Below, piece after piece: positions 11,306 through 61,946 of a DNA stretch of 64,000 bases. The stretch's first letter is position 1, and each line of letters begins with the position of its first letter. Position numbers and translations under genes: made by a program. The notes under the pieces were generated by a model. The model had not been told where the DNA came from, made no database searches, and was given only the letters and a program-made list of their open reading frames with translations. Source of the stretch: Rickettsiales bacterium. Lineage in GTDB: Bacteria; Pseudomonadota; Alphaproteobacteria; Rickettsiales; UBA998. The DNA is taken from assembly GCA_028279475.1 (NCBI GenBank), contig JANQNR010000004.1, positions 1-64,000 of the forward strand, read 5' to 3'.

Positions 11306-11368
11306 TATAGCAGTTCAACTTAAGAATTTCCCATTTATGAGAAGTTCTTAAGTTGAGAAACTGCTATA
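11306..11368. repeat. palindromic repeat, family A (TATAGCAGTT ends)
   Basis: 63 bp. The arms TATAGCAGTT-CAACTTAAGAA and their inverted partner (with three extra bases) fold into a long hairpin with a short loop. Just beyond, GAACGAGTATA at 11379-11389 matches one end of family B (61818-61871), suggesting a deleted family B copy beside it. It lies between the second toxin-antitoxin pair and ychF. Confidence 0.85.
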
Positions 11369-23902: not shown

Positions 23903-23964
23903 TATAGCAGTTCAGCGTAAGAATTTCCCATGTGGAGGAATTCTTACGTTGAGAAACTGCTATA
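23903..23964. repeat. palindromic repeat, family A (TATAGCAGTT ends)
   Basis: 62 bp: TATAGCAGTTCAGCGTAAGAA, short loop, then the inverted arm ending AAACTGCTATA. The inner stem bases differ from 11306-11368 but remain complementary (GCGTAAG with CTTACGT). Confidence 0.88.
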
Positions 23965-23975
23965 TATTTAAAGAT

Positions 23976-24302
23976 ATACTCGACCTTCAGCTTTTAGGCC
24001 TCGTTGAGAGATATATTAAGGGTTTGCCATGCGACTGATTTTGCCGAAGAACAAGGGGAATATTGCACCGCGTAGTGGTGCTACGGGGAAAATATTTTCC
24101 GACGTTATTCGGCAAAATCAGCCATGGTTCTTCGAATTGCGGCGAAAATGGCCGACTACTTTGTTGAAGTCCTTGTCCGTAGCAACCACTACGCACTGCG
24201 GGCTTCGCCTCGTATTCAGCCATTTTCGACTCGCAACAAAACATTAATATATCTCTCAACGAGGCCTAAATTCCATAAGGAATTTTAACGCTGAACGAGT
24301 AT
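23976..24302. repeat. palindromic repeat, family B (ATACTCG ends), interrupted
   Basis: Left part ATACTCGACCTTCAGC, right part CGCTGAACGAGTAT. If the element at 23993-24270 is removed at its TA, the two parts join into a ~56-bp palindrome that aligns along its whole length with the reverse complement of the intact copy at 61818-61871, including the central AAATTCC/GGAATTT arms. Confidence 0.82.
23993..24270. mobile_element. MITE-like element with 27-bp perfect terminal inverted repeats
   Basis: The ends 23993-24019 and 24244-24270 are exact inverse copies over 27 bp (TTTAGGCCTCGTTGAGAG...). Read as TA-GGCC...GGCC-TA the element is ~270 bp with a TA target duplication, as Tc1/mariner/IS630-type elements make. 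Inside are three more inverse pairs: 24027-24048 with 24108-24127 (14 bp exact core CTGATTTTGCCGAA), 24070-24086 with 24177-24194 (one base different), and 24143-24152 with 24219-24228. They interlock rather than nest. No coding capacity, so it would need a transposase in trans. Confidence 0.85.
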
Positions 24303-24353
24303 ATAGACTGAAATCTCTTTACATACTTCAACATAGGCAGGTAGGCTCCTCCT

Positions 24354-61884: not shown

Positions 61885-61946
61885 TATAGCAGTTTTTCAA
61901 CATAAGAACTTCTGCGAATGAAGAATTCTTATGTTGAACTGCTATA
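61885..61946. repeat. palindromic repeat, family A (TATAGCAGTT ends)
   Basis: 62 bp; arms TATAGCAGTTTTTCAACATAAGAA and the inverse with AACTGCTATA. Its right end overlaps the yggS coding sequence and supplies the stop codon and the last five residues. Confidence 0.88.

What the first reader, a model, noticed from the sequence alone, without database searches (positions are those of the whole stretch)
23993..24270. 278-bp noncoding element with perfect 27-bp inverted ends and interlocked internal repeats
Besides the exact terminal repeats, three internal inverse pairs occur in the order a-b-a'-c-b'-c' (24027-24048/24108-24127; 24070-24086/24177-24194; 24143-24152/24219-24228), plus a 14-bp palindrome GGAAAATATTTTCC at 24087-24100. 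Interlocking, not nested, repeats mean the strand can fold in alternative or pseudoknotted ways. Such order is more than a simple hairpin MITE needs and suggests a structured RNA or a regulatory switch.
Basis: seen in the sequence. Interest (0 to 1): 0.78.

Follow-up and report, generated by a model that had tools for sequence, protein, structure and literature searches.

The report
Widespread folded mobile DNA in Alphaproteobacteria
The 274-base palindromic stretch is one copy of a small transposon-like DNA element with two interlocking hairpins that recurs across the Alphaproteobacteria, and its paired bases change together at the DNA level rather than in the way expected of an RNA switch.

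Summary
The own genome holds five copies. A covariance model finds relatives in 57 of 343 Rickettsiales genomes and, at E<=1e-6, in 40 of 385 genomes of the class, 38 outside the order. No Rfam family matches.

76 of 86 pairs show double changes. Partner-swap tests support the terminal stem, both arms and the interlocked tips, but not one long hairpin. The covariation is strand-symmetric: G.U versus A.C is 71:70 in Rickettsiales, 208:181 in other orders. The ends turn over faster than the core, nearly always in concert. That points to DNA-level maintenance (template switching between arms is inferred), not selection on one RNA strand. An open frame in some copies shows no codon signal.

Best reading: a MITE-like element inserted at YTAR, often reusing neighbouring stop codons, probably moved by IS5-type transposases (PF13340 in 3 of 29 carriers, not this genome). 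A sense bias in operons (20:6) is unexplained.

The parts
23995..24268 (+). the whole mobile element, TA to TA, 274 bp
   Evidence: boundaries shared by the copies of the family; CM match 1-273 of 273, 261.6 bits
23995..24019 (+). P1 left, 25-bp terminal inverted repeat
   Evidence: perfect complement of 24244-24268; covaries across copies, 0 of 5000 permutations
24244..24268 (-). P1 right, terminal inverted repeat
24027..24127 (+). arm 1: hairpin a-b-a'
   Evidence: fold; a x a' covaries, 0 of 5000
24071..24085 (+). tip b of arm 1, CGTAG-TGGTG-CTACG, loop complementary to tip b'
   Evidence: b x b' covaries, 0 of 5000; one copy per genome 129 of 5000
24087..24100 (.). 14-bp palindrome GGAAAATATTTTCC, on the 3' side of the inner stem of arm 1
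   Evidence: part of the paired stretch
24128..24136 (+). small hairpin TTC-TTC-GAA between the arms (CCC-loop-GGG in most relatives)
   Evidence: fold; columns 138-145 of A4 with CG to UA double changes
24137..24237 (+). arm 2: hairpin c-b'-c' (limits approximate)
   Evidence: fold; c x c' covaries, 0 of 5000
24178..24193 (+). tip b' of arm 2, CGTAG-CAACCA-CTACG; this copy has one extra A against its relatives
23974..24304 (.). older hairpin repeat into which the element was inserted (ATATACTCG at 23974-23982, CGAGTATAT at 24296-24304)
   Evidence: I10, I11; flanks joined with one TA fold into a hairpin of -25.1 kcal/mol

Best explanation
A small non-autonomous mobile DNA element (MITE-like), one copy of an old family spread over the Alphaproteobacteria. 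Shown: about 270 bp of near-constant size; ends TA...TA at YTAR sites; a terminal stem (P1) enclosing two hairpin arms with complementary tips; near-identical copies at unrelated sites; the partners of a pair change together, without preference for one strand. Inferred: transposition in trans by IS5-type transposases whose outermost end sequence the elements resemble; pairing of arms and tips kept by DNA fold-back (template switching between arms during replication, or need of a folded DNA form for movement) rather than by selection on a transcript. The copy in this window is probably idle: no transposase of the three Pfam families sought was found in its genome, and it carries small indels.
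For: Five copies in the genome; hits in 57 of 343 Rickettsiales genomes and 40 of 385 genomes of the class, 38 outside the order; named carriers Martelella and Sinorhizobium plasmids. Recent movement: three G340 copies with cores of 221-222 bp that are identical or differ at one position, in unrelated flanks. Window insertion site restored as a hairpin with one TA. Covariation of P1, a x a', c x c', b x b' but not of the extended hairpin. Strand symmetry of mismatches: 71:70, 208:181, P1 12:16. P1 differs at 29% of sites against 15% in the core, 202 concerted to 38 single changes, in runs. Inverted arm spacer in one copy, the hallmark of template switching (PMC8604942 abstract). IS with PF13340 transposase and similar TA-flanked ends in G247.
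Against: No partner transposase in the window genome: PF13358 and PF01609 over cut-off in 0 of 9 genomes, PF13340 in 3 of 29 carriers, 2 over cut-off, so the IS5 link rests on one genome. Sense bias 20:6 among copies in co-directional gene pairs is not predicted. P1 of the class set leans to G.U 14:4, and the two arms of the class set lean in opposite directions, 81:45 and 53:80. No orthologous empty site between sister species was examined.
Confidence: 0.66

Rival explanations
1. A functional RNA in mRNA leaders or operon spacers (cis-regulator, RNase III target or translational coupler) whose fold, kissing tips included, is kept by selection on the transcript.
For: Sense orientation 20:6 (17:5 for long forms); downstream open frames on the same strand often start within some tens of bases; conserved complementary tips; P1 of the class set 14 G.U to 4 A.C.
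Against: Strand-symmetric mismatches in the stems against 5:0 in a small tRNA control (18 tRNAs); no Rfam match; many different neighbours and 6 antisense, 12 divergent and 4 convergent sites; ends that change faster than the core.
Confidence: 0.15
2. Pure mutational by-product: an ordinary MITE whose inverted repeats are homogenised by template switching, tips included, with no role for the fold at all.
For: Arm homogenisation and spacer inversion are both seen and known elsewhere (PMC8604942 and PMC8794818, abstracts); b and b' share GTAG/CTAC seeds that could prime a switch.
Against: Overall size, arm layout and core motifs are kept across orders; the left and right outer arm halves, also partly complementary in the window, do not covary.
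Confidence: 0.13
3. A mobile small gene: the element encodes a short protein from ATG near its left end to a stop codon at its right end.
For: Frame open end to end in several copies with a ribosome-site-like AAGGA/AGGAG before ATG; protein-level search reaches other families.
Against: Substitutions 50:53:53 by codon position (4 copies tested, P1 left out), 10 of 49 long copies open end to end in frame +1 or +2, many copies with several stops; no Pfam or NCBIfam match.
Confidence: 0.04

Closest known systems
Bacterial MITEs with TA ends (Correia/NEMIS, RUP, ERIC/RU-1)
   Same: Short, no transposase, terminal inverted repeats, mostly intergenic, palindromic, some with open frames (PMC2229807 abstract and section 9; PMC2759123 abstract; PMC10969869 passages). 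TA duplication of Correia and RUP is recalled.
   Different: About 270 bp with two arms and complementary tips; spread over many families of one class; the terminal repeats differ between copies of one genome yet stay paired. ERIC at 127 bp is smaller.
Rickettsia palindromic elements (RPE)
   Same: Same order of bacteria; palindromic, repeated, some with open frames.
   Different: RPEs are given as 105-146 bp and often sit in frame inside genes; these elements are about 270 bp (short form 163-182 bp) and mostly lie between genes.
RIME of rhizobia and Bru-RS of Brucella
   Same: Palindromic intergenic repeats of Alphaproteobacteria (PMC2573895 passages; PMC2267715 passages).
   Different: Not compared: no sequence was at hand. 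Bru-RS is listed at 103-105 bp, 118 in that study.
IS5-type insertion sequences
   Same: An 883-bp IS in G247 with a PF13340 protein has TA-flanked ends TAGGTTCTGTTGACAAAATTTT, close to the ends of that genome's short elements.
   Different: The elements carry no transposase, and most carriers show no such protein.
Integron attC sites
   Same: Works-like comparison only: variable sequence with a conserved folded DNA form (recalled, no call).
   Different: No integrase or cassette was sought; ends and target differ.

Membership tests
MITE (non-autonomous TIR element) | terminal inverted repeats | tested here: met
   834 of 882 terminal pairs Watson-Crick in 49 long copies
MITE (non-autonomous TIR element) | several copies at unrelated sites | tested here: met
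MITE (non-autonomous TIR element) | short target duplication | tested here: inconclusive
   TA at both ends of most copies; one restored site inside a hairpin; no orthologous empty site examined
MITE (non-autonomous TIR element) | no transposase of its own | tested here: met
   about 270 bp, no Pfam or NCBIfam match for three translations
MITE (non-autonomous TIR element) | autonomous partner with matching ends | tested here: inconclusive
   similar ends of an IS in one genome, G247; none found in the window genome
Cis-regulatory RNA / riboswitch | match to a described family | tested here: not met
   only sub-threshold chance matches
Cis-regulatory RNA / riboswitch | pairing kept on one strand (G.U tolerated, A.C not) | tested here: not met
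   71:70 and 208:181; P1 of the class set is an exception, 14:4
Cis-regulatory RNA / riboswitch | fixed position and sense before a set of related genes | tested here: inconclusive
   sense bias 20:6, neighbours differ between copies but were not named by a search
Rickettsia palindromic element | 105-146 bp, recurrent in-frame insertion in genes | tested here: not met
   274 bp, between genes; family size about 270 bp
RIME / Bru-RS | sequence similarity to the published repeats | not tested
   sequences not at hand; the RIME paper is not held

The most novel reading that the evidence does not exclude
A class-wide selfish DNA whose hereditary identity is its fold: a terminal stem and two hairpins locked by kissing tips, recognised as folded (single-stranded or cruciform) DNA, so that even the transposon ends are free to change sequence as long as both change together.
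Probability: 0.25. Interest if true: 0.85.

Novelty: new variant of a known kind. Interest (0 to 1): 0.58.

Why it matters
It is a small mobile element found in many alphaproteobacterial families that no Rfam family covers, and a clear case where strong covariation, usually taken as proof of a functional RNA, is strand-symmetric and better explained at the DNA level. It makes the role of template switching in keeping palindromes paired directly testable, and it is a warning for RNA-discovery pipelines. If the fold itself is what the movement machinery recognises, it would be an unusual way for a transposon to be recognised.

Tried and rejected
Viral relatives: the two exact hits of the end motif in viral contigs lie in phage-like coding sequence, and the core motif has none. 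G004 (25 nt) is a chance hit. Weak protein hits in G159, G319 and G044:C8 had no terminal repeats and were dropped. A 2854-bp span between two ends in G072 holds ordinary-looking genes and no transposase that I recognised. IS630 (PF13358) and IS4/5 DDE (PF01609) partners: none over cut-off in 9 genomes. Coding hypothesis: followed through, rejected. Extended single-hairpin fold: rejected. Plasmid look-ups: no match for 4 of 6 queries, one weak named hit each for two. Literature searches (open-licence library, listings only except where passages are cited) showed no description of this family; subscription papers were not visible.

Rows dropped before counts: A4 uses 25 of the 34 loci (left out: L120 truncated, L127 cut, L136 with insert, L137 and L143 with deletions, L142 with inverted spacer, L132, L145 and L146 without ends). 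One search uses same-genome pairs of 260-280-bp copies with core identity of at least 0.70 (43 pairs; the pairs below that were not printed). One search uses the 46 same-genome pairs with 2 to 11 concerted changes. One search found tips in 39 of 41 class copies. The class set is 40 copies fetched from 20 of the 38 out-of-order genomes, plus Martelella. Orientation: 42 of 66 Rickettsiales copies had both flanks called, 26 of these with both genes in one direction; in the class set 4 of 41 had both flanks called, so it says nothing. Gene calls there are longest-open-frame calls, not annotation.

Full report
What is there. Window 23995-24268 is a 274-bp element that begins and ends with TA. A perfect 25-bp terminal stem (P1) encloses two long hairpins: arm 1 (24027-24127; a, tip b, a') and arm 2 (about 24137-24237; c, tip b', c'), with a small hairpin between them. 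As single-stranded DNA it folds 13 standard deviations better than shuffles.

It is a repeat family. The own genome has five copies: three of full length, one carrying a 129-bp insert, one with a 117-bp internal deletion. A relative lies in another genus of the family. A search with the translated frame reached other families of the order; the exact core motif finds contigs of the MAG 'Rickettsiales bacterium isolate PL24a_bin.1' whose lengths equal those of G072, so the order is taken as Rickettsiales. A covariance model of 25 copies (R1) gives hits in 57 of 343 genomes of the order, including a short form of 163-182 bp with P1 and arm 1 only, and in 40 of 385 genomes drawn from the class at E <= 1e-6, 38 of them outside the order. 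The sequences agree in size and in core motifs such as CCC-loop-GGGTT, not only in fold. Named carriers are a Martelella mediterranea plasmid (272 bp, E = 2e-47) and a Sinorhizobium chiapasense plasmid. No Rfam family fits.

It moves. In G340 three copies have cores of 221-222 bp that are identical or differ at one position, in unrelated flanks. The window copy sits inside another hairpin repeat; joining its flanks with one TA restores that hairpin. The target reads YTAR in the copies that I looked at. Of 92 Rickettsiales ends that begin with a stop codon, 17 close a neighbouring open frame of at least 120 codons; in the two other frames 5 and 4 of 132 ends have such a frame running in. This fits insertion into the TA of TAA/TAG stop codons, which leaves the protein whole.

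Structure and covariation. RNAalifold gives 86 pairs, 76 of them with a two-sided change. Because structure programs favour G.U, I tested complementarity by swapping partners between copies: P1, a x a', c x c' and the tips b x b' are all more complementary within a copy than after swapping (0 of 5000 each; tips with one copy per genome 129 of 5000). The two pairings of a single extended hairpin show nothing (4063 and 4395 of 5000). In copies from other orders the tips behave the same (39 tips, 0 of 401).

RNA or DNA? Selection on a transcript should accept G.U and reject A.C. With helices chosen by Watson-Crick pairs alone, the Rickettsiales set has 71 G.U and 70 A.C outside the outer 18 pairs of P1, the class set 208 and 181 over all helices, and P1 of 49 Rickettsiales copies 12 and 16. 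A small control, 18 tRNA acceptor stems from the same loci, has 5 and 0. Against this, P1 of the class set leans to G.U (14:4, p = 0.03), and its two arms lean in opposite directions (81:45 and 53:80, summed from the helices), which I cannot explain.

Ends that turn over. Between copies of one genome 29% of P1 sites differ against 15% of core sites, and 202 of the 240 differing P1 sites changed on both sides, 195 of them with Watson-Crick pairs in both copies (43 pairs, not independent). The changes come in runs: 142 adjacent pairs against 117 +/- 6 in permutations. Template switching between inverted-repeat arms is known to homogenise arms and to invert the spacer (PMC8604942, abstract; PMC8794818, abstract and opening text). 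One G072 copy has just that: its arm-2 spacer is inverted, 54 of 57 bases matching as reverse complement. This is my preferred cause of the covariation; it is inferred, not shown.

What moves it. In G072 the end motif TAGRCACYGTTR occurs 46 times against 2 for the reversed control, shared by 35-bp palindromes, 165-bp and 270-bp elements, as if one transposase served them all. In G247 an 883-bp IS with a PF13340 (IS4/5-type) transposase ends TAGGTTCTGTTGACAAAATTTT, close to the TAGGCTCTGTGAACAAAATTTT of that genome's short element. PF13340 was found in 3 of 29 carriers, over the cut-off in 2, and PF13358 or PF01609 over the cut-off in 0 of 9. The window genome had none of the three, so its copies may be stranded. 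The partner assignment rests on one genome.

Not a gene. Frame +2 is open in several copies with a ribosome-site-like start, but substitutions fall equally on the three codon positions (50:53:53, four open copies), few copies are open end to end, and no family matches.

Open point. Among Rickettsiales copies between two genes of one direction, 20 are sense and 6 antisense, p = 0.009 (17:5 for the long forms, p = 0.017). Either the antisense form is harmful or the sense transcript does something. This is the best remaining argument for an RNA role, and I keep that rival at 0.15.

Verdict. The thing is real, conserved and widespread. The kind (MITE-like element) is known; the architecture and the lock-step turnover of its ends are unusual. 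Parts of the family may already be in print under names such as RIME or Bru-RS; I could not compare them.

Noticed in passing
window 23903-23964, 11306-11368, 61885-61946 (single ends at 1118 and 15348): A second hairpin repeat of about 62 bp, TATAGCAGTT...AACTGCTATA; a related one lies inside the element copy at G000:C7.
   Followed up: partly
G072 (many contigs; L158, L167, L171, L207, L210, L216, L219, L223, L224): Ends TAGRCACYGTTR occur 46 times (control 2) on 35-bp mini-palindromes, 165-bp and about 270-bp elements and as many solo ends.
   Followed up: partly
L142, element at 1517-1788 in the reverse-complement reading used: Copy with inverted arm-2 spacer; its open frame runs on into a downstream open frame.
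   Followed up: partly
17 element ends listed: The terminal TAG of the element closes a neighbouring long open frame, far more often than in the other two frames (5 and 4).
   Followed up: partly
class set: Arm 1 leans to G.U (81:45) and arm 2 to A.C (53:80) in copies from other orders; unexplained.
   Followed up: no
L316:1501-1905 (NZ_CP020331.1 58414-58818): Annotated hypothetical protein Mame_RS26800 overlaps most of the element in Martelella; perhaps a spurious or element-derived gene.
   Followed up: no
L269, L284-L288: Short forms (163-167 bp, P1 and arm 1 only) in Rickettsia-like and other genera, with a tip GGAATAGTTATTCATATT also seen in long G081 copies.
   Followed up: partly
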